Assembly (NCBI GenBank): GCA_036399055.1
Contig: DASWNX010000018.1
Location: 84,912 to 148,911 of the forward strand
Direction of reading: 5' to 3'
Source of the DNA: Jatrophihabitans sp.
GTDB taxonomy: Bacteria > Actinomycetota > Actinomycetes > Mycobacteriales > Jatrophihabitantaceae
Length of the DNA stretch: 64,000 nt
Shown here: in pieces, positions 2,331 through 53,131 of the stretch
Numbering within the stretch: the first letter of the stretch is position 1
Layout of the letters: each line of letters starts with the position of its first letter
Program-made: the position numbers and the translations under genes
The notes under the pieces: generated by a model
Database searches by the model: none
What the model was told of the DNA's origin: nothing
Seen by the model: only the letters and a program-made list of their open reading frames with translations

Positions 2331-3359
2331 CTAGCCGAGCGGGGGCGGCTGGCTGGTCGGAGCAGGCCCACTCAAGGCCGGCCCGCCGGAGGCCTCGCCG
2401 GGCGGTCCGTCGAGGGGAGCCGCGCCGGCGTCGGGCTCACTGTCGCCAGCTTCGCCGGTCGCCTCGGGCCCGCGCGACCGGCCGGCTCTGCCGGTGGCCG
2501 AGCGGTTAGCCTCCAGGGTGGTGCCCGCGCTGGCCACCACCACCATGACGATCGCGGCAACGGTTCGAAGCTGCGGCCGCTGGCTGAGCACCAGCATGCC
2601 GGCCAGCGCGGCGAAAGCCGGCTCCAGGCTCATCAGCAGTCCGAAGCCGGCCGCTGACAACCGGCGCAGGGCTATCAGCTCCAGTGAGTACGGGATCAGA
2701 GAGGACAGCACCGCCACCCCTAGGCCCCCCAGCAGCACGTCCGGGCGCAGCAGCGCCGAGCCGCCGTCGGCGACTCCGGCCGGGAGCATCACCAGCGTCG
2801 CCAGGGTCAGGGCGATCGCCAGGCCGTCCAGCCCGGCGAAGCCTGAGCCGACCCGTTGGGACAGCAGGATGTAGGCAGCCCAGAAGGCGCCGGCCAGGGC
2901 GGCCAGCAGCAGCCCGACGAGGTCCAGGCTCTGGTGCGAGCCGCCGAAGGCCAGCAGCGCCACACCGCCGCCGGCCAGCGCCACCCAGAGCAGGTCGAGC
3001 ATTTTGCGGGAACCGGCGATGGCCACCCCGAGCGGCCCGATGAACTCGACCGTCGCCGCCGGTCCGAGCGGCAGCCGGTCCAGCGACTCGTAGAAGCTCC
3101 AGTTCATGCAGGCCAGCACCAGCCCGAAGCCCACTGCCGCCAGCAGGTCGCGGCGGGTCCGGCCACGCAGCCGGGGCCGGGTCAACGCCAGCAGGACCGC
3201 CGAGGCGAACGCCAGCCGCATCAGCACCACGCCGGCCGGACCGGCCTTGGCGAACAGGGTGTCGGCGAAGGCGGCGCCGAACTGCACCGAGGCGATGCCG
3301 ATCAGGATCAGGGCCTGCGGCGGAATGGCGTCGGTCCGCCCCGGTGGTCGCACGCTCAC
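2331..3359 (-). CDS. EamA/DMT-family transporter, RhtA-like
   Basis: Inner-membrane exporter or importer of the drug/metabolite transporter superfamily, about 342 residues with ten predicted membrane helices in two EamA repeats. Visible landmarks include the [21 protein letters not shown] segment typical of RhtA-like threonine/homoserine exporters and a second repeat ending [12 protein letters not shown]. The C-terminal 60 residues are Gly/Pro/Ala-rich and cytoplasmic. I chose GTG at 3359; the in-frame extension to 5267 runs antisense through thiE and gpgS and is spurious. The operon with thiO/thiS hints at an amino-acid or thiamine-precursor substrate, but the substrate cannot be told from sequence. 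Confidence 0.85.
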
Positions 3360-3458
3360 ATGCTCGCACCCCCGGCGACGCGCCGGTTCCAGACACCGCA
3401 GGTCAGCTCGGGGCCGGCGTCCGGCGGTCCTCGGACGCGGCGGTGGTTGGATGAGGCG

Positions 3459-4109
3459 ATGACCAAGCCCTCGCTGGCCGCTATGGCAACAGCCCGGTTG
3501 TACCTGTGCACCGACTCCCGGCGCGAACGCGGCGACCTGGCCGACTTCCTCGACGCGGTGCTGGCGAACGGGGTCGACATCGTCCAGCTGCGCGAGAAGA
3601 ACCTCGAAGCGGCCGACGAGCTCGCGGCGCTGGAGGTGATGGCCGACGCGTGCCGCAGGCATGCCAGGCTGCTGGCGGTCAACGACCGCGCCGACCTGGC
3701 GGTCGCGGCCGGCGCGGACGTGTTGCACCTGGGTCAGCGCGACCTGGCGCCGGCCACCGCCCGCCGGATCGTGGGCCCGGACGTGCTGATCGGCCTGAGC
3801 AGCCACAGCGTCGAGCAGGCCAGGGCCGCGGCGGCGGTGTCGGAGGTGGACTACTTCTGCCTGGGACCCATCTGGGCGACCCCGACCAAGCCGGGACGCC
3901 CGCACACCGGCCTGGCGCCGGTGGCCACGCTGGCGGCTGAGGAGGTGGCCCGACCCTGGTTCGGCATCGGCGGCATCGACGAGTCCAACCTCGACCTGGT
4001 GCTCGAGGCCGGCGCCCGCCGGGTCGTGGTGGTTCGGGTGCTGACCGAGGCCGCCGACCCGGCAGCGGTGGCAGCCCGGCTGGCCGGGCGGCTCACGGCG
4101 GCAGGCTGA
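3459..4109 (+). CDS. thiE: Thiamine phosphate synthase ThiE
   Basis: Joins hydroxymethylpyrimidine diphosphate and thiazole phosphate to give thiamine phosphate. The protein has 216 residues, the family norm, with a TIM-barrel pattern: LYLCTDSR (strand 1), DIVQLREKN (pyrimidine-diphosphate binding), [33 protein letters not shown] and WFGIGGI. ATG 3459 has GAGG just upstream; ATG 3483 is an alternative start. It is divergent from the eamA-thiO-thiS unit. I could not recognise a TPP riboswitch in the 100 bp between them. Confidence 0.93.
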
Positions 4110-4190
4110 ACCGAGGCGCTTGCTTGAGTGAGGGGCCGCGACGCCTAGCGCGGTAGCGTCGAGCAGGTCAGACAGCGGAGGGGTGCCGGT

Positions 4191-5297
4191 ATGGATGTCG
4201 CCGCACGGCGATGGTTCGACTCGCACACCTTCGACGCGGCACGGTTCGGGCTCGCCGACCTGCTCAGGGCCAAGCGGCAGTCGGCTGACACCGTCAGCGT
4301 GGTGATCCCGGCGCGCGACGAGGCCGGGACCGTCGCGGCCGTGGTCAGCCAGATTCGCCAGGCGCTGATGGTCACCGGCCTGGTGGACGAGTTGATCGTC
4401 CTGGACTCCGACTCCACCGACGACACCGCGGCGGTGGCCCGGGCCGCGGGCGCGACCGTGTTCGCCGCCCGCGACATCGACACCGGCACACCGGTGAGCC
4501 CCGGCAAGGGCGAGGCGTTGTGGAAGTCGCTGTTCGTCACCAACGGTGATCTGCTGGTCTTCATCGACGCCGACCTGACCGAGTGGGGTCCGCACTTCGT
4601 GACCGGCCTGCTCGGGCCGTTGCTGACCGACCCGGACACCCTGCTGGTCAAAGGCTTCTACGACCGGCTGGCCGACGACCTGCCCGCGGAGCCGGCTGCC
4701 TCGCCGCCGAACGCCGCGCCGCAGGGCGGCCGGGTCACCGAGCTGGTCGCCCGGCCGTTGCTGAACCTCTACTGGCCCGAGCTGGCCGCTGTCGTGCAGC
4801 CGTTGGCCGGCGAGTGGGCCGTGCGACGCTCGCTGATCGAGTCGCTGCCCATCCCGGTCGGCTACGGCGTCGAGTTCGCCAGCCTGACCGACACCTGGCG
4901 CCTGCACGGCCTGCCGGCGATCGCCCAGGTCGACCTGGGCAGACGTGGGCATCGGCACCAGAACGTGCATGATCTGGGAGTGATGGCCGCCGAGATCCTG
5001 GCGACGGCGATGCGCCGGCTGCCGCTGGGTCGGTCCGGCGGGTCCGCGCAGGCGCCGCCGGGGCTGGCGCCGCCGGTCCAGGCGCGAGACCTGCAGCAGT
5101 ACGACCGCGGCACCCCGCAGGGCTGGCGCAGCCGCTCGGTGCCGGTGATCGAGCGCCCGGCCGCCCGGGGCAACGCGCGCTACCGGGCCCATGAGCAGCG
5201 GGCCCATGAGCAGCGGGCGCATGAGCAGCGGGCGCATGAGCAGCGGGCCCATGAGCAGCGGGCCCATGAGCAGACAGTGACCCGATGCTCGAGCTAG
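4191..5297 (+). CDS. gpgS: Glucosyl-3-phosphoglycerate synthase GpgS
   Basis: GT-A glycosyltransferase (family GT81) that makes glucosyl-3-phosphoglycerate, first step of methylglucose lipopolysaccharide or glucosylglycerate synthesis. It begins DVAARRWFDSHTF, then VVIPARDEAGTV, LDSDSTDDT, FIDADLTEW (D126-A-D128, metal/nucleotide site) and GYGVEFASL, all characteristic of GpgS. The catalytic part ends near residue 290. The remaining 78 residues are poorly conserved and finish in six tandem copies of a five-residue repeat, AHEQR. GGAGGGG precedes ATG 4191. The 3' end overlaps folP2 by 13 bp, as in the adjacent gpgS-folP2 pair of mycobacteria. Confidence 0.93.
   Translation: MDVAARRWFDSHTFDAARFGLADLLRAKRQSADTVSVVIPARDEAGTVAAVVSQIRQALMVTGLVDELIVLDSDSTDDTAAVARAAGATVFAARDIDTGTPVSPGKGEALWKSLFVTNGDLLVFIDADLTEWGPHFVTGLLGPLLTDPDTLLVKGFYDRLADDLPAEPAASPPNAAPQGGRVTELVARPLLNLYWPELAAVVQPLAGEWAVRRSLIESLPIPVGYGVEFASLTDTWRLHGLPAIAQVDLGRRGHRHQNVHDLGVMAAEILATAMRRLPLGRSGGSAQAPPGLAPPVQARDLQQYDRGTPQGWRSRSVPVIERPAARGNARYRAHEQRAHEQRAHEQRAHEQRAHEQRAHEQTVTRCSS
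5184..5275 (+). repeat. 15-bp tandem repeat, six copies, in gpgS
   Basis: The unit gggcccatgagcagc recurs with exact 15-bp spacing; ATGAGCAG begins at 5191, 5206, 5221, 5236, 5251 and 5266. Only one position varies (c/g before CATGAG). Because 15 is a multiple of three, copy-number change would lengthen or shorten the AHEQR tail of GpgS without a frameshift. Each copy also carries an ATG with a purine-rich stretch, just ahead of the folP2 start. Confidence 0.95.
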
Positions 5298-44550: not shown

Positions 44551-44985
44551 ATGCCTCCCAAGAAGAAGAAGCTCACCGCGGTCATCAAGCTGCAGATCAA
44601 GGCCGGCATGGCCAACCCGGCGCCGCCGGTGGGTCCCGCGCTGGGCCAGCACGGTGTGAACATCATGGAGTTCTGCAAGGCCTACAACGCCGCGACCGAA
44701 GCCCAGCGCGGCCAGGTCGTGCCCGTCGAGATCTCGGTCTATGAGGACCGCTCGTTCACCTTCGTCACCAAGACCCCGCCGGCCGCCCGGCTGCTGCTGG
44801 CGGCTGCCGGTGTCGAGAAGGGCTCGGGCGAGCCGCACAAGACCAAGGTCGCCAAGGTCAGCATGGCGCAGGTCCGCGAGATCGCTCAGACCAAGATGGA
44901 AGACCTCAACGCCAACGACCTCGATCAGGCGTCCAAGATCATCGCGGGCACCGCCCGGTCGATGGGCATCACCGTCTCGGACTAG
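44551..44985 (+). CDS. rplK: 50S ribosomal protein L11
   Basis: A 144-residue protein forming the GTPase-associated centre with 23S r[46 protein letters not shown] contains the conserved Pro-rich linker for thiostrepton-type antibiotics. The C-terminal domain ends [10 protein letters not shown]. Followed by an unusual 180-bp spacer before rplA. Confidence 0.98.
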
Positions 44986-44989
44986 CGTC

Positions 44990-45095
44990 GCCGCTGCTTT
45001 CCTGGCGTCACCGCTTTCCTGACGACACCGCTTTCCTAAAACATCGCTTTCCTGGAAACACCCGCTTCACTGGAAGACCCCGTTTCACAGCGACA
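44990..45095 (+). repeat. Degenerate ~18-bp repeats in the rplK-rplA spacer
   Basis: Variants of CCGCTTTCCTGnnnACA follow each other at 44992, 45008, 45028, 45046 and 45064 (spaced 16-20 bp), decaying rightwards. The spacer of 181 bp is unusually long for rplK-rplA. It may fold into small hairpins or be decayed duplication debris. An L1-binding mRNA site for autogenous control would also be expected near here, but I could not identify one. Confidence 0.5.
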
Positions 45096-45166
45096 CCGCC
45101 TCACCAAGTGGGAGGGCGCCGACCGCCGGCGTCCGTCAGACCACGCGAATGCAAGGAGTGACTTCA

Positions 45167-45886
45167 ATGGCAAAGCGCAGCAAGGCATATCAAGAGGCCG
45201 CCAAGCTGGTCGACACCAGCAAGATCTACAGCCCGCTGGAGGCGGCCAAGGTCGCCATCCAGAGTTCGCCGGCCAAGTTCGACGCGACCGTCGAGGTGGC
45301 GATGCGGCTGGGAGTCGACCCTCGCAAGGCCGACCAGATGGTGCGTGGCACCGTGAGCCTGCCGCACGGCACCGGCAAGACCGCCCGGGTCATCGTGTTC
45401 GCCACCGGCGCTCAGGCCGAAGCCGCTCGGGCCGCCGGAGCCGACAAGGTCGGCAGTGAGGACCTGATCCAGGAGATCACCGACGGCTACCTCGACTTCG
45501 ACGCCGCGATCGCCACTCCGGACCAGATGGCCAAGGTCGGCCGGATCGCTCGGATCCTCGGCCCGCGTGGTCTGATGCCCAACCCGAAGACCGGCACGGT
45601 CACCCCCGACGTCGCCAAGGCCGTCGCTGACATCAAGGGCGGCAAGATCACATTCCGGGTGGACAAGCAGTCCAACCTGCACCTGATCATCGGCAAGGCG
45701 TCCTTCTCGGCCGACCAGCTGGTGGAGAACTACGGCGCCGCGCTGGATGAGGTGCTGCGTGCCAAGCCCGCCTCGGCCAAGGGCAAGTACCTGAAGAAGG
45801 TGGTGTTCTCGACCACCATGGGCCCCGGCATCCCCGTGGACACGCTGCGCACGCGCAACCTGCTGGAAGAGACCCAGCAGGCCTGA
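45167..45886 (+). CDS. rplA: 50S ribosomal protein L1
   Basis: A 239-residue L1-stalk protein. It starts [16 protein letters not shown] with AAGGAG upstream; the frame's earlier ATG (45149) is not used. Signatures are [36 protein letters not shown] and [21 protein letters not shown]. It is followed by a strong terminator, so rplJ-rplL are not co-transcribed with rplK-rplA. Confidence 0.98.
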
Positions 45887-45982: not shown

Positions 45983-46321
45983 CTTGCCCGGGGCGCCCCC
46001 GGTTCGCCGGCCTGGCCGCGCACCAGACCCCCCGCTGCTGGGTCACGACCACGGCCGCTGTGAGGAACTTGCTGGCGCGAGCCGGCTCGAATGGGTGCTC
46101 ATCCGAGCCGGCCGTACCGCGGTGATCCTCACCTAGGCAGAGGCCACAGCACCGCCGTTGATACCTCGTTTCAGACATGGATCGTTTCCAGTCATAGATC
46201 GCCGCGCGGCGATCTATGACTGGCGGTGGTGACACATCATCGCCATGTATCAGCGAGCTGCCGGCTACCTCCTTGTCATGCGGTGAAAAGGTCCTAGGCT
46301 CTGATCTGAGGCGAAACCGCG
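45983..46321. other. Upstream region of the sigma/protease cassette
   Basis: No protein gene is supported. The region is less GC-rich after 46140 and contains the perfect palindrome at 46188-46223. Short ORFs here have no recognisable product. I see no clear -35/-10 pair; the sequence tgaaaaggtcctaggct (46284-46300) may be the promoter of the sigma gene. Confidence 0.4.
46188..46223. repeat. Perfect 36-bp palindrome
   Basis: Arms of 18 bp, CCAGTCATAGATCGCCGC and its exact complement, abut without a spacer (centre 46205/46206). There is no T run, so it is not a standard terminator. It lies about 100 bp before the sigma-factor start. It could be a dimeric-protein operator, a cruciform site, or a recombination or dif-like target. 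Confidence 0.95.
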
Positions 46322-46960
46322 GTGGCAAGCAACGCGACGGCGGGAGTGCGAACGACGGATGTGGCAGCGATGATCAATGCCGAAGCTGAACAGGAAACAC
46401 TGGCCAGTCGCGCGGGGGAGGTGTTCCAGCGCTTCCGCGAAGGTCACTCCGAGGCCATGGGTGAGCTGGTGGCGATGCTCACCCCGATCCTGTGGCACAC
46501 CGTGCGCGCCCAACGCCTGGACAGGGAGTCCACCGAGGACGTGCTGCAGACCACCTGGCTGGCGTTGGTCCGCAGCACCGAGTCGATCTCAGACCCGCGG
46601 GCGGTGTTGCAATGGCTGATCGTCGCGGCCCGCCGGGAGGCCTGGCGGGTGATGAAGGCGCAGGCGCGGCAGTTGCCCTACGAGATCGATGAGGACGCCC
46701 TTCAGACGCCTGACTCCGACCTGCCCGAAAGCGTCGTTCTGCGCGGCGTCTCGCAGAAGGTGCTCTGGTCTCATGTGTCCGCGCTGTCGGAACGATGCCG
46801 GACGCTGCTGCGGGTGATCGCCTTCGCCGACCGCCCTGATTACCCGGAACTGGCCCGTTCGCTGGGCATGCCCATCGGAAGTATCGGCCCGACCCGTGGC
46901 CGATGCCTTGCGAAGCTGCGCGCTTCACTGTCCGCCGACGCTCGTTGGGAGCTGCGATGA
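46322..46960 (+). CDS. Sigma-70/ECF-like sigma factor
   Basis: A 212-residue sigma factor of two-domain type. Region 2 is LTPILWHTVRAQRLDRESTEDVLQTTWLALVRS with RAVLQWLIVAARREAWRVMK. Region 4 is LSERCRTLLRVIAFADRPDYPELARSLGMPIGSIGPTRGRCLAKLRASL, including the S-I-G-P-T-R-x-R helix-turn-helix. A GTG at 46322 with GAGGCG upstream is chosen; ATG 46370 is possible. The stop overlaps the next gene by ATGA. No classical anti-sigma gene adjoins, so control may come from the partner proteins of this cassette. Confidence 0.9.
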   Translation: MASNATAGVRTTDVAAMINAEAEQETLASRAGEVFQRFREGHSEAMGELVAMLTPILWHTVRAQRLDRESTEDVLQTTWLALVRSTESISDPRAVLQWLIVAARREAWRVMKAQARQLPYEIDEDALQTPDSDLPESVVLRGVSQKVLWSHVSALSERCRTLLRVIAFADRPDYPELARSLGMPIGSIGPTRGRCLAKLRASLSADARWELR

Positions 46961-47463
46961 ACACCTCCGAGATTCCTGACGAGCGGCTGGCCGGAGCTCC
47001 GCTCGACGCCTCGGACGCGATCGTCCTGTCCATGATCGCTGAGCTGTACGACCTGGTCGACCCGGTTCCCTCGGACTTGGTGGACCGGCTCCAGTTCAGC
47101 ATCACCTTGGACGCGCTCAACGCCGAGCTTGCCGAGCTGCAGCAGCTGCCCGAGCCTGCGCTGGCCTTCCGCGGCGAGCAGGCCAGTGTCGTCAACACTT
47201 TGACTTTCACCAGCGAGAGCCTGACGACCATGGTCGCGCTCAGCCCGGACGGCCCGGACCGGGTGCGGATCGACGGCTGGATCGCTCCCGGCGCCGAGGC
47301 CGTCGTCGAACTGCACCAGGGCGCGCTGACCCGTCGGGTCTCGGCCGACGCCGACGGCAGGTTCGTCTTCGAGGACGTCGCGCACGGCCTGACCCGGTTC
47401 GTGGTGAGCGCCGCCGACCCGGGCGCCCACCCCCCGGTCATGACGCCCGCCGTCGAGATCTGA
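46957..47463 (+). CDS. 168-aa protein with carboxypeptidase-regulatory-like beta domain
   Basis: Coupled to the sigma gene by ATGA. The N-terminal half (about 1-75) is helical and acidic (DAIVLSMIAELYDLVDPVPSDLVDRLQFSITLDALNAELAEL). The C-terminal half is a beta-sandwich-like segment (VRIDGWIAPGAEAVVELHQ, ADADGRFVFEDVAHGLTRFVVS), similar to carboxypeptidase-regulatory or Ig-like domains. No signal peptide or membrane helix, and no zinc-binding anti-sigma motif. The helical part could bind the sigma factor and the beta part could be a protease substrate or adaptor, but function is unknown. Confidence 0.75.
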   Translation: MNTSEIPDERLAGAPLDASDAIVLSMIAELYDLVDPVPSDLVDRLQFSITLDALNAELAELQQLPEPALAFRGEQASVVNTLTFTSESLTTMVALSPDGPDRVRIDGWIAPGAEAVVELHQGALTRRVSADADGRFVFEDVAHGLTRFVVSAADPGAHPPVMTPAVEI

Positions 47464-47508
47464 CAAGGCAACCAAGGCCTTCGGGCTCAAGCAACCGTCG
47501 AGGATCAC

Positions 47509-49167
47509 ATGAGCTCAACCCAGCCCCCTGACGACCTCGGCGCGGCGCGGCCACCACGGCGGCGGCGTGAACCCAGCCTCAACCCGCCGCCAGAAGTGCT
47601 CAACAAGCATGGCGGCCGGTTGCTCGACCCCTCCAGCGCCGTTCGGCTGCCGGGTCAGCCGGCGATCCGTCCGACCGTCTATGTCGGCTGGCGGCTGCTG
47701 GTCCGTTCGGTCAAGCTCGATGACGAGGTGCTGCCCGCCCTCAACCAGGCCGCCTCCGAGTCGAACCTGCGGTTGGTCTTCGACCAGGCCGACGCCAAGC
47801 TGCTCGGGCTCGCTCGGCAGGCCGGCCTTGAAGACCTGGCGCTGCGGGTGCTGGCCACCCGGGTTCGGCTTGAGCCGGCCAGCGACAAGCCGGCCGCGCC
47901 GCCGGACGCCTGGCAGGTGCTGCAGAGCTTCCGTTCCATCGTCGGGTCGGACAACCCGGCGGCCTCCCAGGTCAGCCTGGATCACCTGCTCACCGCGACC
48001 GACGGGATGCAGCACTCCGCCGGTGTCTCCGGCGCCCCGCACATGGGCGGCGCCCCATACATGGGTGGCGGGGGTGCGGACGGAGTGCCCTACATGGGCG
48101 GCGGCAGCGTCGGCGTCAGCTCGCAGTACGGCATCCCCGGACACGGCGGCCGGGCCCCGGTCACCTGGATGGGAGCGCCGCCCACCCGGGTCTCCCACGA
48201 TGACAAGCCCTGTCGGCGGCCGGTCGTGGCGGTGCTGGACACCGGCGTCGGCAAGCACCCCTGGTTGCCGGCCTCGATCGTCAAACGCCACCCCCACATC
48301 GGAAGCCTGCCGATCGGCCACACCGACCCGGCGACCGACCCAGAGGTCAGCGGGTACTTGGACAACCCGCTGGAGGGCACCCTGGACCCGGACGCCGGCC
48401 ACGGCACCTTCATCGCCGGACTGATACGGCAGATCTGCCCCGATGCCAACATCCTCGCGATCCGGGTGATGTACGGCGACGGCGCGGTGCCCGAAGGCGA
48501 CCTGCTGGAGGCGTTGAACCGGCTGTTGCTGCGTCAGGCGCTGGCCCAGGCGCTGAACAAGCCCAGTTGGCTGGTCGACGTCATCTCGCTGTCTCTGGGC
48601 TATTACCACGAGCTGCCCGCCGACTTCGCCTATGACCAGCTGCTGCTCGAGACGCTTCGCGCGCTCGGCGAGCTCGGCGTCGCGATCGTCGCGGCGGCCG
48701 GTAACGACGCGACCGCCAGGCACTTCTATCCCGCCGGATTCGCGCCGCACGTGGGCGGTCAATGGAACGCCGTCGAGCCCAACGTGCTGCCGGTGATCAG
48801 CGTCGGCGCGCTCAATCCGGACCTGCGATCGGTCGCGCTGTTCAGCAACGCCGGTGACTGGGTGTGCTGTCACCGTCAGGGCGCGGCCCTGGTGAGCACC
48901 ATGCCGACCACCTTCAACGGCTCCCTGCAGCCGGTCGCCGCCGTTCACCCCCACGGCAGCGGACTGCGCTCCACCATCGACCCGGACAACTTCTACGGCG
49001 GCTTCTCCACCTGGAGCGGCACGTCGTTCGCGGCGCCGATCCTGGCCGCAGAGCTGGCCAAGGTCCTGTGGGAGTCCAAGAGCCTGGACACCTCTGACGC
49101 CGCCACGATGCTGGACCGGGGCTGGAGCGCGCTGGAACTGCTGACCGACGTCCGGCGCCCCGCGTGA
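47509..49167 (+). CDS. Cytoplasmic S8 (subtilisin-type) serine peptidase
   Basis: A 552-residue peptidase without signal peptide. The catalytic triad is intact: D244 (VAVLDTGVG), H298 (GHGTFIAGL) and S506 (GTSFAAPILAAE), with oxyanion N399 (AAAGNDA). Residues 1-165 hold a Pro/Arg-rich start and a helical-beta region (YVGWRLLVRS...LRLVFDQ). Residues about 170-215 are Gly/Met-rich with repeats PHMGGAP-YMGGGGADG-VPYMGGG, probably an exposed linker. Third gene of the cassette, 45 bp after the 168-aa gene. In-cell processing of a partner is more likely than secretion. Confidence 0.93.
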   Translation: MSSTQPPDDLGAARPPRRRREPSLNPPPEVLNKHGGRLLDPSSAVRLPGQPAIRPTVYVGWRLLVRSVKLDDEVLPALNQAASESNLRLVFDQADAKLLGLARQAGLEDLALRVLATRVRLEPASDKPAAPPDAWQVLQSFRSIVGSDNPAASQVSLDHLLTATDGMQHSAGVSGAPHMGGAPYMGGGGADGVPYMGGGSVGVSSQYGIPGHGGRAPVTWMGAPPTRVSHDDKPCRRPVVAVLDTGVGKHPWLPASIVKRHPHIGSLPIGHTDPATDPEVSGYLDNPLEGTLDPDAGHGTFIAGLIRQICPDANILAIRVMYGDGAVPEGDLLEALNRLLLRQALAQALNKPSWLVDVISLSLGYYHELPADFAYDQLLLETLRALGELGVAIVAAAGNDATARHFYPAGFAPHVGGQWNAVEPNVLPVISVGALNPDLRSVALFSNAGDWVCCHRQGAALVSTMPTTFNGSLQPVAAVHPHGSGLRSTIDPDNFYGGFSTWSGTSFAAPILAAELAKVLWESKSLDTSDAATMLDRGWSALELLTDVRRPA

Positions 49168-49239
49168 GCCCGCAGAGCCATCCAGCGCCTGCACGCTGAT
49201 TCGCGGCCCAGCCGCGCGCTGAGTGGGTAGGGTCACGGA

Positions 49240-51780
49240 ATGATCCGCATTGACAGCGCGGGTCTGGCCGAAGCTAGACGGCTGCACGCGCTGGGCGTCG
49301 AGCACAACAACGCCGGCCATCCGCTGCGTGCCGCCAAACTGTTCCGGCGGGCCCTGTCGCTGCCGGCCCTGGGCGAGCACGCCAGCGGCCAGGCTCGGCT
49401 GATGGCAGCTCGCATCTGGATCAGCTTGGCCATGAGCGAGTCCGAGCTCAACGGCGCCGAGCGCGGGCTGGCCGCGCTGGCCGAGGCTGAGCGCCTGGTC
49501 GAGCTGAGCGAGCATCCGGAACTGAGCGCCCTGCTGCACCTGCAGAACGGCTACATCCACGTCCGGGCCGGGCATTTCGAGGCCGGTCTGGAGCACCTGA
49601 ACTCCGCGGTCGCCCTGATCGATCACGCCGAGCCGGCGCATGCCAGCAACATCCTGCTCAACCGGGGCAGCCTGCACCTGTATCGCGGTCAGTTGACCGC
49701 GGCCAGGCAGGATCTCAGCCAGTCAGCGGAGCTCGCCGCCGCGCACGGCCTGCGGGTGGAGGAGTTCAAGGCCCGGCACAATCTGGGCTATCTGGAGTTC
49801 CTGGCCGGCAACCTGGCGATGGCCCTGAGATCCATGGACGACGCGCAGGCCATCGACGCCAAGGTGTCCCTCGCGGTCGCGCTGCTGGACCGGGCCCGGG
49901 TGCTGCTGGAGGCCGGCCTGCACCGGGAGTCCGATGACTCGCTGATCGAGGCGGCCGCGCTGTTCCGGGCCGAGCGGCTGCACAAGGAGCTGGCCGAGGT
50001 GGAACTGGCCCGGGCCGAGTGCGCCTTGCTGGACGGTGAGACCGCGGCGGCGCGCAGGCTGGCGGCCACTGCCCGCAACCGGTTCCGCCGACGCTCCAAT
50101 GACCGGTGGCGCCGCGACGCCGAGCTGGTGCTGCTGCACGCCGACCTGGCAGCCGGCCGCCCTGGCAGCCGGTTGGCCGGACCGGCGCTTCGGCTGGCGT
50201 CGGAATTCCGCACGGCGGGCCTGGACACCCAGGCCAGGACCAGCCAGTTGATCGCCGCCGAGGCGCTGCTTCGCGCCGGGCAGACGGAGCAGGCCCGCAC
50301 GGTGGCCGCTGAGGCCGGGCCGATCCGGACCGCTGACCCGGTCTCGGCCCGGCTGCAGACCCGGCTGGTGCGAGCCCGGTTGTCCATCGCAGGCCAGGAC
50401 GTCACCAGCGCCCGACGTGAGATCCGCACCGGTCTGACCGAGCTTGCCAACCACCAAGCCCAGTTCGGCTGCATCGACCTGCAGACTGCCAGCGCTGTGC
50501 ACGGCCGTCAGCTCGCCGAGCTGGGCCTGGCCATGGCGCTGGCCGAGGGTAAGCCGGCCGGCGTGCTGGCCGCGATCGAGCGCGGGCGGGCGACCTCGAG
50601 CAGGCTGCCGGGAGTCAGCGCGCCCACGGACCCGGTGGCGGCCGAACTGCTGGCTGAGCTGCGGCGCGCGGTCGAGGGGCTGCGCTTGATCCAGTCCGAC
50701 GCCGCGGCCGCCGAGAAGGCCACCGCGCAGCGACGCCGGATCGCCGAGCTGCAGCGGGACCTGCGGGCTCGCTCCTGGCAGACAGCGGGCACCGGAAGCG
50801 CTCCAAGGCCGGCCTCCTTGGCTCAGATAGAGGCGGAGCTGAGCCGTGCCGAGACGGCGCTGGTGTGCTACTTCGACGTCGGCGGCCGGTTGCACGCGGT
50901 CGTGCTCGCCCACGGCCGGTCCCGGATCGTGCCCCTCGGCGACAGCGTGACGGTGTCGGAGACGGTCCGCCGGGTTAGGGCCGACCTTGACGTGCTGGCC
51001 CAGTCCAACCTGCCGCAGGCGCTGCTCGCCGCGGTCTGCGCGACCTTGAACCGGTCGCTGTCCAGGCTTGCGGAGCTGTTGCTTGCCCCGCTGGCGCTGC
51101 CTGAGGACCGGGTGGTGATCGTGCCGACCGGGATCCTGGCCGCGTTGCCGTGGACCAACCTGGCGCCGATGAGAGGCCGCCCGGTGGTGGTGGCGCCCTC
51201 GGCGACGGCCTGGTTGGCAGCCAACCGGCCGGCCGGGCGGGGCAACGGGCCGGTGGTGGGGGTGGCCGGGCCGGACCTGACCCACTCCGAGAAGGAGGTC
51301 CTCGCGATCGGCAGGGCCTGGCCGGGGGCGCGGGTGCTGACCGGCGCCCAAGGCGGTCGTGCCGAGCTGGTGTCCGCGCTGGCCTCGGCCACCGTGGTGC
51401 ACGTGGCCGCGCACGGTCAGCACAATGCCGAGAACCCGCTGTTCTCCCTGATCCGGCTGATCGACGGCCCGCTGTTCGCCTACGAGCTCGACCTCACCAG
51501 CCGGGCCGCCGAGCATGTGGTGCTGTCGGCCTGCGAGCTCGGCCAGGCGACCATCCGGACCGGTGACGAGGCCCTCGGGCTCACCAGCGTGCTGCTGCGG
51601 CTGGGCACCCGGTCGGTGATCTCGGGAGTCGCCCGGGTGCCTGACGACGTCGCGGCCGAGGTGATGACCGATTACCACGTGGCGCTGTCCGGCGGCCTGG
51701 ACTCTGCGTCGGCGCTGGCCCAGGCCTGCGCCGCGTCCAGCACGCCCGCGCCGTTCGTCTGCTTCGGCTCGAGCTGGTGA
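49240..51780 (+). CDS. TPR-CHAT protease (caspase/separase-like)
   Basis: An 846-residue protein. About residues 5-430 are tetratricopeptide-like helical repeats (for example ALGVEHNNAGHPLRAAKLFRRALS, LLNRGSLHLYRGQLTAARQDL, HNLGYLEFLAGNLAMALRSM). A coiled segment (about 480-530) follows, then the CHAT domain. Its caspase-type dyad is intact: H725 (VVHVAAHGQHNAENPLFSLI) and C765 (VVLSACELGQ). CHAT proteases act in Csx29 of Craspase, in gasdermin systems and other immunity systems. Last gene of the cassette, 72 bp after the subtilase; its TPR part would sense a partner or ligand. Confidence 0.93.
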   Translation: MIRIDSAGLAEARRLHALGVEHNNAGHPLRAAKLFRRALSLPALGEHASGQARLMAARIWISLAMSESELNGAERGLAALAEAERLVELSEHPELSALLHLQNGYIHVRAGHFEAGLEHLNSAVALIDHAEPAHASNILLNRGSLHLYRGQLTAARQDLSQSAELAAAHGLRVEEFKARHNLGYLEFLAGNLAMALRSMDDAQAIDAKVSLAVALLDRARVLLEAGLHRESDDSLIEAAALFRAERLHKELAEVELARAECALLDGETAAARRLAATARNRFRRRSNDRWRRDAELVLLHADLAAGRPGSRLAGPALRLASEFRTAGLDTQARTSQLIAAEALLRAGQTEQARTVAAEAGPIRTADPVSARLQTRLVRARLSIAGQDVTSARREIRTGLTELANHQAQFGCIDLQTASAVHGRQLAELGLAMALAEGKPAGVLAAIERGRATSSRLPGVSAPTDPVAAELLAELRRAVEGLRLIQSDAAAAEKATAQRRRIAELQRDLRARSWQTAGTGSAPRPASLAQIEAELSRAETALVCYFDVGGRLHAVVLAHGRSRIVPLGDSVTVSETVRRVRADLDVLAQSNLPQALLAAVCATLNRSLSRLAELLLAPLALPEDRVVIVPTGILAALPWTNLAPMRGRPVVVAPSATAWLAANRPAGRGNGPVVGVAGPDLTHSEKEVLAIGRAWPGARVLTGAQGGRAELVSALASATVVHVAAHGQHNAENPLFSLIRLIDGPLFAYELDLTSRAAEHVVLSACELGQATIRTGDEALGLTSVLLRLGTRSVISGVARVPDDVAAEVMTDYHVALSGGLDSASALAQACAASSTPAPFVCFGSSW

Positions 51781-51970: not shown

Positions 51971-52036
51971 GTGTTCCGAGGTTGATCGGCCGCCCACCGC
52001 TGGCGAGCCGGCGCAGACGTGCAAGAGAGGAGGGAC

Positions 52037-52699
52037 ATGCCGAACAAAGAGAAGCTCGGTGCGGTCGCCGAGATCGTCGACCAGTTCAACGCATCCTCGG
52101 CGACGGTGATCACCGAGTACCGCGGGTTGACCGTCAAGCAGGTGACGCAGCTTCGCCAAGCGTTGGGCGGGGACACCACCTACACCGTGGTCAAGAACAC
52201 CCTCACCCGACGGGCCGCCGCCCAAGCCGGCGTCAGCATCGACGACAGCCTGCTGGTGGGGCCGACCGCGATCGCGTTCGTCAAGGGCGACCCGGTCGCG
52301 GCCGCCAAGGGTTTGCGTGATTTCGCCAAGGCCAACCCGCTGCTGGTCATCAAGGGCGGCGTGGTCGAGGGCAAGTCGATCAGCGCCGCCGAGGTCAACC
52401 AGATCGCTGATCTGGAGTCCCGTGAGGTGTTGCTGGCCCAGATCGCCGGTGTCCTCAAGGCACTGCCGAGCCGCGCCGCGGGCCTGTTCCAGGCGCCGCT
52501 GTCGCAGGTCGCCAGGCTGGCCAAGGCACTGGAGGACAAGACTCCGGGTGAGGCCGCCGCACCGGCGTCCGAGACCGCGGTCGAATCCTCCGACGCAGCC
52601 GAGGCGCCCGCCGACGCAGCCGAGGCTTCTGCCGACGCTGCCGAGGCTTCTGCCCCGCAGACAGCAACCGACACTCCCGCCGAGCCGGCGGAGCAGTAA
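52037..52699 (+). CDS. rplJ: 50S ribosomal protein L10
   Basis: Stalk base protein that anchors L7/L12 dimers. [40 protein letters not shown] is typical, as is [12 protein letters not shown]. The 220-residue protein has an Ala/Glu-rich tail of about 45 residues beyond the L12-binding helix ([11 protein letters not shown]), longer than most. ATG 52037 follows GAGGAGGG; the earlier in-frame start (52019) would add six residues. Confidence 0.97.
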
Positions 52700-52744
52700 C
52701 CAACCCATCTGCCGGCTTTCCCGGCGATACAGAAAGGACACATC

Positions 52745-53131
52745 ATGGCCAAGCTCAGCACTGACGAGCTCATCGACGCGTTCAAGGAGCTCACCCTTCT
52801 CGAGCTGTCGGCATTCGTGAAGCAGTTCGAGGAGACCTTCGACGTCACCGCCGCCGCTCCGGTCGCGGTCGCCGCTGCCGGTCCGGCCGGTGGCGCGCCT
52901 GCCGAGGCCGAGGCAGAGCAGGATGAGTTCGACGTCATCCTCGAAGCTGCCGGTGACAAGAAGATCCAGGTCATCAAGGAGGTGCGCACCCTCACCAGCC
53001 TCGGCCTCAAGGAGGCCAAGGACCTGGTGGACGGCGCTCCCAAGGCGGTCCTGGAGAAGGTCAACAAGGAGGCGGCGGAGAAGGCCCGCGCAGCCCTGGA
53101 AGGCGCCGGCGCCTCGGTGACCGTCAAGTAG
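52745..53131 (+). CDS. rplL: 50S ribosomal protein L7/L12
   Basis: A 128-residue stalk protein. The N-terminal dimer domain ([29 protein letters not shown]), Ala-rich hinge and C-terminal domain ([44 protein letters not shown]) are all standard. AGAAAGGA precedes the ATG. Last gene of the rplJL unit before a strong terminator. Confidence 0.98.

What the first reader, a model, noticed from the sequence alone, without database searches (positions are those of the whole stretch)
46188..51780. Sigma factor + 168-aa protein + cytoplasmic subtilase + TPR-CHAT protease cassette: candidate protease-controlled transcription/immune system
Seen: four co-directional genes with ATGA or short spacing. Both proteases keep full catalytic sets (S8 D244/H298/S506; CHAT H725/C765) and neither has a signal peptide, so both act in the cytoplasm with a sigma factor that has no classical anti-sigma gene. 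Established: in type III-E CRISPR Craspase, the TPR-CHAT protease Csx29 cleaves Csx30, which holds a sigma factor (RpoE/CASP-sigma); CHAT and subtilisin-type proteases also accompany bacterial gasdermins. Inference: the 168-aa protein may be a sigma-binding partner, the CHAT protein a TPR-sensing protease and the subtilase an activator or second step, so that a signal releases the sigma factor. No CRISPR or gasdermin gene is in the window. I cannot tell whether the cassette has been reported.
Basis: partly seen in the sequence, partly recalled or inferred. Interest (0 to 1): 0.85.

Follow-up and report, generated by a model that had tools for sequence, protein, structure and literature searches.

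The report
Protease-linked sigma factor cassette (ECF54)
Four neighbouring bacterial genes (a transcription switch protein, a small partner, a probably dormant subtilisin and a caspase-like protease) form a conserved chromosomal module of actinobacteria that matches the catalogued ECF54 group; its likely promoter signature and an exchangeable, repeat-bearing protease are described here.

Summary
In detail: four co-directional genes (ECF sigma factor; 168-aa protein 'BSP'; S8 subtilase; TPR-CHAT protease) lie between rplK-rplA and rplJ-rplL. In 107 non-redundant relatives the sigma gene directly precedes BSP in 105, CHAT follows in 97, S8 lies within 5 kb in 75. The set matches the published ECF54 context (carboxypeptidase, subtilase, CHAT), for which proteolytic control was proposed before (PMC8999054). 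Craspase is an analogy only: no Csx30 match was found, and the CHAT protein scores 22 of 300 bits for Csx29. The immune reading is unsupported. Not found in my limited library: (1) a promoter-like signature, GTATC-N17/18-CTC, before 85 of 102 cassettes; (2) sigma-BSP-CHAT is the core, and in 18 of 19 Cellulomonas loci a trypsin-like protease stands in for S8; (3) that protease and many S8 proteins carry tandem P-[FY]-[TS]-like arrays; (4) S8 models as an unprocessed pro-subtilisin with the array in its activation linker. Best model: BSP holds sigma, CHAT (with the zymogen protease as second step) removes it, and sigma re-fires its operon. BSP-sigma contact and cleavage are inferred, not shown.

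The parts
46247..46273 (+). Predicted cassette promoter: GTATCA (46247-46252), 16 nt, CTCCT (46269-46273)
46140..46164 (-). Divergent copy of the promoter signature (GTATCA-N16-CTC on the minus strand); no convincing gene behind it in this genome
46188..46223 (.). 36-bp perfect palindrome between the two signatures, function unknown
46322..46960 (+). ECF sigma factor (ECF54-like by context); likely start ATG 46370
46957..47463 (+). 168-aa protein (BSP): N-terminal helices (18-34, 41-56), low-confidence linker (about 57-78), Ig/FN3-like beta-sandwich (79-168); candidate anti-sigma factor and protease substrate
47509..49167 (+). S8 subtilase, no signal peptide by eye, modelled as zymogen
47590..47994 (+). 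S8 residues 28-162: folded N-domain, aligned with subtilisin prodomains from residue 54-60 on
48031..48105 (+). S8 residues 175-199: degenerate tandem array G-x-P-[HY]-M-G-G in the low-confidence linker between N-domain and catalytic domain
49240..51780 (+). TPR-CHAT protease (TPR about residues 81-355, CHAT 605-829, dyad H725/C765)
44551..45886 (+). rplK (44551-44985) and rplA (45149-45886): conserved upstream flank
52019..53131 (+). rplJ (52019-52699) and rplL (52745-53131): conserved downstream flank

Best explanation
An autoregulated, protease-gated sigma module (ECF54 type). The sigma factor transcribes its own operon from GTATC-N17/18-CTCCT. The 168-aa protein, made in translational coupling with it, holds the sigma factor inactive through its N-terminal helices; its linker and beta-sandwich offer the protease site. 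The TPR domain of the TPR-CHAT protein senses a cytoplasmic signal and the CHAT protease acts on the 168-aa protein, directly or through the S8 zymogen, whose prodomain must first be cut away in the linker that in many relatives bears a repeat array; freed sigma then amplifies the operon. Shown by sequence: the gene set, its conservation, the promoter signature, conserved active-site residues, and the arrays. Predicted by model: the zymogen shape of S8. Inferred: that sigma uses this promoter, sigma holding, the order of cuts, the signal.
Against: No physical contact or cleavage is shown. BSP matches no anti-sigma family. The published wording for ECF54 speaks of control without an anti-sigma factor. 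At 4 of 107 loci CHAT is absent although sequence continues for over 7 kb (L061, L062, L065, L132). The signature is missing in 17 of 102 upstream regions, among them all five named Actinotalea loci (three of the 17 have a copy at a nearby second S8). Other spacers reach up to 11 of 102 (spacer 20). Genome-wide the motif is hardly above control in the window's own genome (7 against 6; longer form 1 against 3), so no regulon beyond the cassette was shown there.
Confidence: 0.5

Rival explanations
1. The proteases act on the sigma factor itself: CHAT and/or S8 keep it low by degradation, with the 168-aa protein as adaptor. A signal stops the degradation.
For: The review section that names ECF54 describes peptidases that keep the system inactive by degrading the sigma factor (PMC8999054 section 3.3, read in full).
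Against: Sigma and the 168-aa protein are overlapping genes in 85 of 105 loci, as is usual for a stoichiometric pair; two proteases that look gated (TPR domain, zymogen model) fit an on-switch better.
Confidence: 0.2
2. The 168-aa protein is not an inhibitor but a sigma co-factor or scaffold that brings sigma and protease together; the protease target is another cell protein.
For: No anti-sigma family hit; Ig/FN3-like sandwiches are generic binding domains (fold; the role is general knowledge).
Against: The closest worked example, Csx30, is an inhibitor and a substrate.
Confidence: 0.13
3. A conflict or phage-defence system in which the protease pair kills or arrests the cell and sigma boosts it.
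For: Caspase-, trypsin- and S8-type peptidases recur in predicted conflict systems (PMC7159879, PMC8195603, passages); ECF sigma plus EACC2-caspase neighbourhoods were described there. One relative's S8 (L109) matches a PADLOC model named subtilase at E 4e-5.
Against: Same place between ribosomal genes in 58 of 107 loci, one match each in the plasmid and phage collections, only weak partial PADLOC hits of the window's four proteins.
Confidence: 0.1
4. A peptide-releasing system: the tandem arrays in S8 or in the trypsin-like protein are cut out, perhaps after Ser/Thr modification by the divergent APH-type kinase or HopA1-type lyase, and act as signals.
For: Homogeneous arrays within each protein; APH and HopA1 genes behind the divergent signature in some loci; an APH and a HopA1 protein together dehydrate Ser/Thr in the class V lanthipeptide cacaoidin (PMC9486802, passages).
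Against: No locus of 107 was found with both an APH and a HopA1 gene (7 HopA1, 4 strong and 6 weak APH); the window has neither beside the cassette, its genome has no HopA1 match, and its array holds no Ser/Thr.
Confidence: 0.07

Closest known systems
ECF54 group of sigma factors (reviewed in PMC8999054, which cites Huang 2015 and Casas-Pastor 2021)
   Same: ECF sigma with conserved carboxypeptidase-, subtilase- and CHAT-domain proteins and proposed proteolytic control; the model member is from Geodermatophilus. The 168-aa family hits Pfam CarboxypepD_reg weakly in 29 of 36 members, so it is probably the 'carboxypeptidase'.
   Different: The two primary papers were not held, so I cannot say whether promoter, arrays or the trypsin swap were noted there. 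I argue that the 'carboxypeptidase' is no peptidase but a candidate anti-sigma factor.
Type III-E CRISPR Craspase: Csx29 / Csx30 / CASP-sigma
   Same: TPR-CHAT protease, ECF sigma and a third protein in one locus; same logic (protease cuts the sigma holder).
   Different: Csx29 model 22.2 bits against 300. The CHAT-domain profile meets 8rot_B first (E 2e-10), then 8d9f and 7x8a (about 2e-6; I recall these as Craspase entries), and the entry named Csx29, 7y9x, only at 0.7. No Csx30 match; an extra zymogen-like protease.
TRADD-N / EACC2-caspase systems with ECF sigma and DUF1822 TPR protein (PMC8195603)
   Same: Caspase domain, TPR protein and ECF sigma in one neighbourhood, peptidase-triggered signalling proposed (passages).
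   Different: Different constant domain (EACC2); no S8 and no 168-aa partner in the passages I saw.
Pro-subtilisins (pro-subtilisin E, pro-Tk-subtilisin)
   Same: Predicted prodomain plus catalytic domain.
   Different: No signal peptide by eye; in many members the activation linker is a lineage-specific tandem array.

Membership tests
ECF54 | ECF-type sigma70 (sigma2-sigma4) | tested here: met
   TIGR02937 44.7 bits, cut-off 42.9, residues 45-201; Pfam Sigma70_r2 below cut-off
ECF54 | carboxypeptidase-like, subtilase and CHAT proteins in the context | tested here: met
   definition from PMC8999054. The CarboxypepD_reg match is below Pfam's cut-off
ECF54 | score against the ECF54 group model / kinship with SFT86700.1 of Geodermatophilus amargosae | not tested
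   model and protein not to hand; primary papers not held
Csx29 / Craspase | Csx29 family model over cut-off | tested here: not met
   22.2 bits, cut-off 300
Csx29 / Craspase | Csx30 homologue beside it | tested here: inconclusive
   no NCBIfam match of the 168-aa protein at E<=1, no Csx30 among profile hits in the PDB; distant homology not excluded
Csx29 / Craspase | Cas7-11 and CRISPR array | not tested
Classical anti-sigma factor families | match to an anti-sigma domain family | tested here: inconclusive
   none among Pfam hits of 36 members at E<=0.1; the N-terminal helices are barely tested by the fold search
Subtilase zymogen (S8 with prodomain) | catalytic triad | tested here: met
   D244, H298 and S506 invariant in 54 aligned rows
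Subtilase zymogen (S8 with prodomain) | N-domain folded as a prodomain on the catalytic domain | tested here: met
   in a predicted model only: pLDDT 87.8, pTM 0.90; aligned with unprocessed pro-subtilisins from model residue 60 on
Subtilase zymogen (S8 with prodomain) | autoprocessing or activation by cleavage | not testable with these tools
   needs protein
Known anti-phage systems (PADLOC) | convincing match of the window's four proteins to a system protein | tested here: not met
   weak partial hits only, best IetS E 0.001 over 23 residues; a relative's S8 matches a PADLOC subtilase model at E 4e-5

The most novel reading that the evidence does not exclude
ECF54 modules are intracellular protease cascades in which the second protease is exchangeable (subtilisin or trypsin fold) because what matters is a short-peptide array, P-[FY]-[T/S]-type units, that the TPR-CHAT protein reads or cuts, in some lineages under Ser/Thr modification by a divergently transcribed APH-type kinase or HopA1-type lyase; its output reaches the 168-aa sigma holder and fires GTATC-N17/18-CTCCT promoters. 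Such a tandem-peptide activation array in two unrelated proteases would be a new way to wire proteolysis to transcription.
Probability: 0.25. Interest if true: 0.85.

Novelty: new member of a known kind. Interest (0 to 1): 0.6.

Why it matters
Proteolytic control of ECF54 is only a proposal: the review I read says that, to its date, only AntA (ECF282) had been shown experimentally to be controlled in this way. A candidate promoter makes a reporter assay possible in a heterologous host; the 168-aa protein is named as the part to test; Cellulomonas loci without S8 reduce the operon to sigma, 168-aa protein and CHAT, with a divergent trypsin-like gene; and the similar peptide arrays of two unrelated proteases are a concrete, odd and testable clue to how a TPR-CHAT protease may talk to a second protease. 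It would also give a non-CRISPR parallel for the Craspase logic.

Tried and rejected
Rejected or weak: (1) Csx30 homology, by NCBIfam, PDB profile search and fold search: nothing; most fold-search rows cover residues 75-168 only, so the helices remain untested. (2) A wider regulon: GTATCA-N16-CTC gave 7 matches in the own genome against 6 for the reversed control; in 26 relatives the longer form gave 60 matches, cassette sites included, against 17 control, in 19 of 26 genomes, with no shared kind of gene by eye behind the non-cassette sites among the up to 30 loci fetched; in 12 named genomes 10 matches against 0, in 7 of 12 genomes, five at the cassette and five before unrelated genes. So no regulon is claimed. 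(3) Mobile defence island: not supported. (4) Proteasome link: prcA is in the locus in 7 cases, all of genus g14, perhaps one event. (5) Domain fusions among the four proteins: no stop-to-stop ORF of L031-L148 hit two core profiles. (6) SIG-BSP covariation: not attempted, too few independent pairs. (8) A BLAST clustering joined genes of L084, L124 and L132 to the trypsin-like family; on inspection none of them encodes it.

Two loci without a sigma gene (L058, L065) and four with under 300 nt upstream were left out of the 102 promoter regions. One search found 43 of 63 S8 ORFs with an array above 50 shuffles; 9 of the 63 are duplicate records (35 of 54 without them), and S8 ORFs without the LD[TS]G motif were not scored. 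In one search spacers other than 17/18 gave up to 11 of 102 in sense and up to 4 in antisense. In the motif check 98 of 109 CHAT ORFs had both catalytic motifs; the other 11 (some truncated or holding N) were not resolved one by one. One search kept the best 80 of 110 relatives. L121 has a second, diverged cassette copy, with an S8 hit of 97 bits on the other strand, between the counted cassette and its trypsin-like gene, so it is not a clean case of replacement. Literature listings were capped: 25 of 103, 10 of 26, 10 of 448; PMC5994538, which holds CHAT and peptidase S8 among its words, was not opened. The same-kind judgement on the arrays of S8 and trypsin-like proteins is by eye.
Full report
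What is there. Window 46322-51780 encodes four + strand proteins: an ECF sigma factor, a 168-aa protein (here BSP), an S8 subtilase and a TPR-CHAT protease. The given start, 46188, is the edge of a 36-bp palindrome, not of a gene. Upstream lie nusG, rplK and rplA, downstream rplJ and rplL and then an ABC-transporter gene (Pfam) at the head of what I read by eye as an mce operon.

Conservation. BSP was found in 35 of 101 genomes of the relatives set and in 46 of 396 genomes drawn across the phylum, some of these with weak E-values near 1e-4. A scan of named genomes gave 110 relatives, 80 kept, mostly Cellulomonas, Cellulosimicrobium, Isoptericola, Promicromonospora and allied genera, with Nocardioides, Microlunatus, Actinopolymorpha, Catellatospora and Jatrophihabitans-type MAGs. 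BSP alone brought the loci in, so its neighbours are independent evidence. Of 107 non-redundant loci, 105 have the sigma gene directly upstream, 97 CHAT downstream, 75 S8 within 5 kb on the same strand (27 upstream, the others downstream); the BSP start overlaps the sigma stop by 4 nt in 85 of 105 (of several possible starts the one nearest the stop was taken). All 35 BSP-positive relatives hold the TPR-CHAT family at E<=1e-60 against 17 of 66 without BSP (Fisher p 1e-14, not corrected for kinship; 17 of the 35 genomes supplied rows of the profile, of the other 18 all 18 match). Two of them (of L061, L062) have no CHAT beside the cassette but one elsewhere. The cassette lies between rplA and rplJ/rplL in 58 of 107 loci, with one of the two flanks in 14 more, beside prcA in 7 and elsewhere or undetermined in 28. 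Matches in plasmid and phage collections were one each: an 11.85-Mb Nonomuraea record and a 7.5-kb unannotated faecal contig. I read this as chromosomal, mostly vertically kept equipment.

Promoter signature. Aligning upstream DNA of nine close relatives (the window among them) showed invariant TGAT and GTATCA blocks and a CTC.T block 16 nt behind GTATCA. Over 102 upstream regions GTATC-N17-CTC occurs in 73 and N18 in 12, together 85; N15 and N16 give 0; other spacers from 10 to 26 up to 11; a scrambled box at most 4. In the 73 aligned sites (A)TGTATCA and CTCCT carry the information and the spacer almost none. A second, divergent copy (N17) lies on the other strand in 34 of 102. In the 64-kb window GTATCA-N16-CTC occurs twice, both before the sigma gene. 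This is what an autoregulated ECF promoter looks like (general knowledge); that this sigma factor uses it is inference, helped by the near-invariant C-terminal stretch GSIGPTRGRCL of the sigma alignment. No wider regulon could be shown.

What the divergent copy faces. In 17 Cellulomonas loci it faces a trypsin-like/NAL1-like protease gene (for L080 and L088 Pfam Trypsin_2 at 2e-5 and 1e-4, under its cut-off, with NAL1-type domains). Such a gene was found in 18 of 107 loci, all named Cellulomonas, none with a same-strand S8 within 5 kb. The exceptions: in L121 a second, diverged cassette with an S8 lies between; and L139, the 19th Cellulomonas locus, has S8 and no such gene. S8 of this family was absent from the whole genome in 5 of 6 of these Cellulomonas genomes tested, with 2 of 2 positive controls. 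All being one genus, this may be one replacement. In other loci the divergent gene is a HopA1-family protein (7, own profile, five checked by Pfam) or an APH-family kinase (4 strong, three checked by Pfam; 6 weak hits lie behind the trypsin-like gene). An APH and a HopA1 protein together dehydrate Ser/Thr in the class V lanthipeptide cacaoidin (PMC9486802, passages); here no locus was found with both. The window keeps the divergent copy but no convincing gene behind it, and its genome has no HopA1 match.

Peptide arrays. Between the N-domain and the catalytic domain of many S8 proteins lies a tandem array whose unit is uniform within a protein and differs between lineages: PFTSH, PYSTPL, PVTSGH, PYTTGH, PYTQPH, GGTGYM, in the window a degenerate G-x-PYMGG. 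Arrays beat 50 shuffles in 43 of 63 S8 ORFs (35 of 54 without duplicates). The Cellulomonas trypsin-like proteins carry 18 to 39 copies of P[FY]T in PFTE arrays behind the protease domain in the 12 examined. A similar kind of array (by eye) in two unrelated proteases of one module points to a function of the array itself. The Promicromonospora S8 proteins aligned lack arrays, and ten of their loci have two CHAT genes. The S8 model has pLDDT 87.8 and pTM 0.90, with the array region under 50, and its top structural matches include unprocessed pro-subtilisins and PCSK9: S8 looks like a zymogen with the array in its activation linker.

What is known. PMC8999054 (section 3.3 read in full, other passages and table rows by search hits) states that proteolytic control was proposed for ECF54 because of conserved carboxypeptidase, subtilase and CHAT proteins. 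The primary papers were not held. A full-text search for ECF54 returned 3 papers, two of them unrelated by title; in the listed part of searches combining CHAT, sigma factor, TPR, subtilisin, HopA1, Craspase and related terms I saw no study of this cassette. The library lacks most subscription papers, so 'not in print' is not claimed. Strecker et al. (PMC10028731, passages) give the analogue: Csx30 inhibits CASP-sigma and Csx29 cuts Csx30. CHAT-domain profile hits in the PDB are 8rot_B (E 2e-10), then chains named CHAT domain protein or TPR-CHAT (E 2e-6 to 2e-4; Craspase entries as I recall), separases (0.1 and above), and the entry named Csx29, 7y9x (0.7): kin at the domain level, not the same family.

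Verdict.

Noticed in passing
window 46188-46223: 36-bp perfect palindrome between the divergent promoter signatures; a 14-base part of its arm occurs once more elsewhere in the genome, and it is not seen in the eight aligned relatives.
   Followed up: partly
L046, L047, L048, L050, L053, L057, L063: In genus g14 the cassette lies near prcA (proteasome alpha subunit), with prcB- and Pup-ligase-like genes (read by eye) in several of these loci.
   Followed up: partly
L116, L119, L122, L127, L131, L135, L141, L142, L145, L147: Promicromonospora loci with two TPR-CHAT genes in a row; their S8 proteins, where scored or aligned, show no peptide array.
   Followed up: no
L121:1-7143: A second, diverged copy of the cassette (BSP, sigma, S8, CHAT hits) lies beside the main one in a Cellulomonas genome, next to the trypsin-like gene.
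   Followed up: partly
L096 genome (G488:C1:2884059-2885000): The one of six tested Cellulomonas genomes with a partial S8 match of this family, at another place than the cassette.
   Followed up: no
G000:C29:114496-115185 and G000:C17:66720-67448: Two further CHAT domains in large open frames (1259 and 1061 aa) of the window's genome, not part of the cassette.
   Followed up: no
window 2331-5267, minus strand: 978-aa ORF whose N-terminus is a run of MGPLL/MRPLL repeats; may be a mis-chosen start.
   Followed up: no
MT838002.1, 1696-2172: A 7.5-kb 'Bacteriophage sp.' faecal contig encodes a BSP relative (45% identity over 96% of the query); possibly bacterial DNA in a viral set.
   Followed up: no
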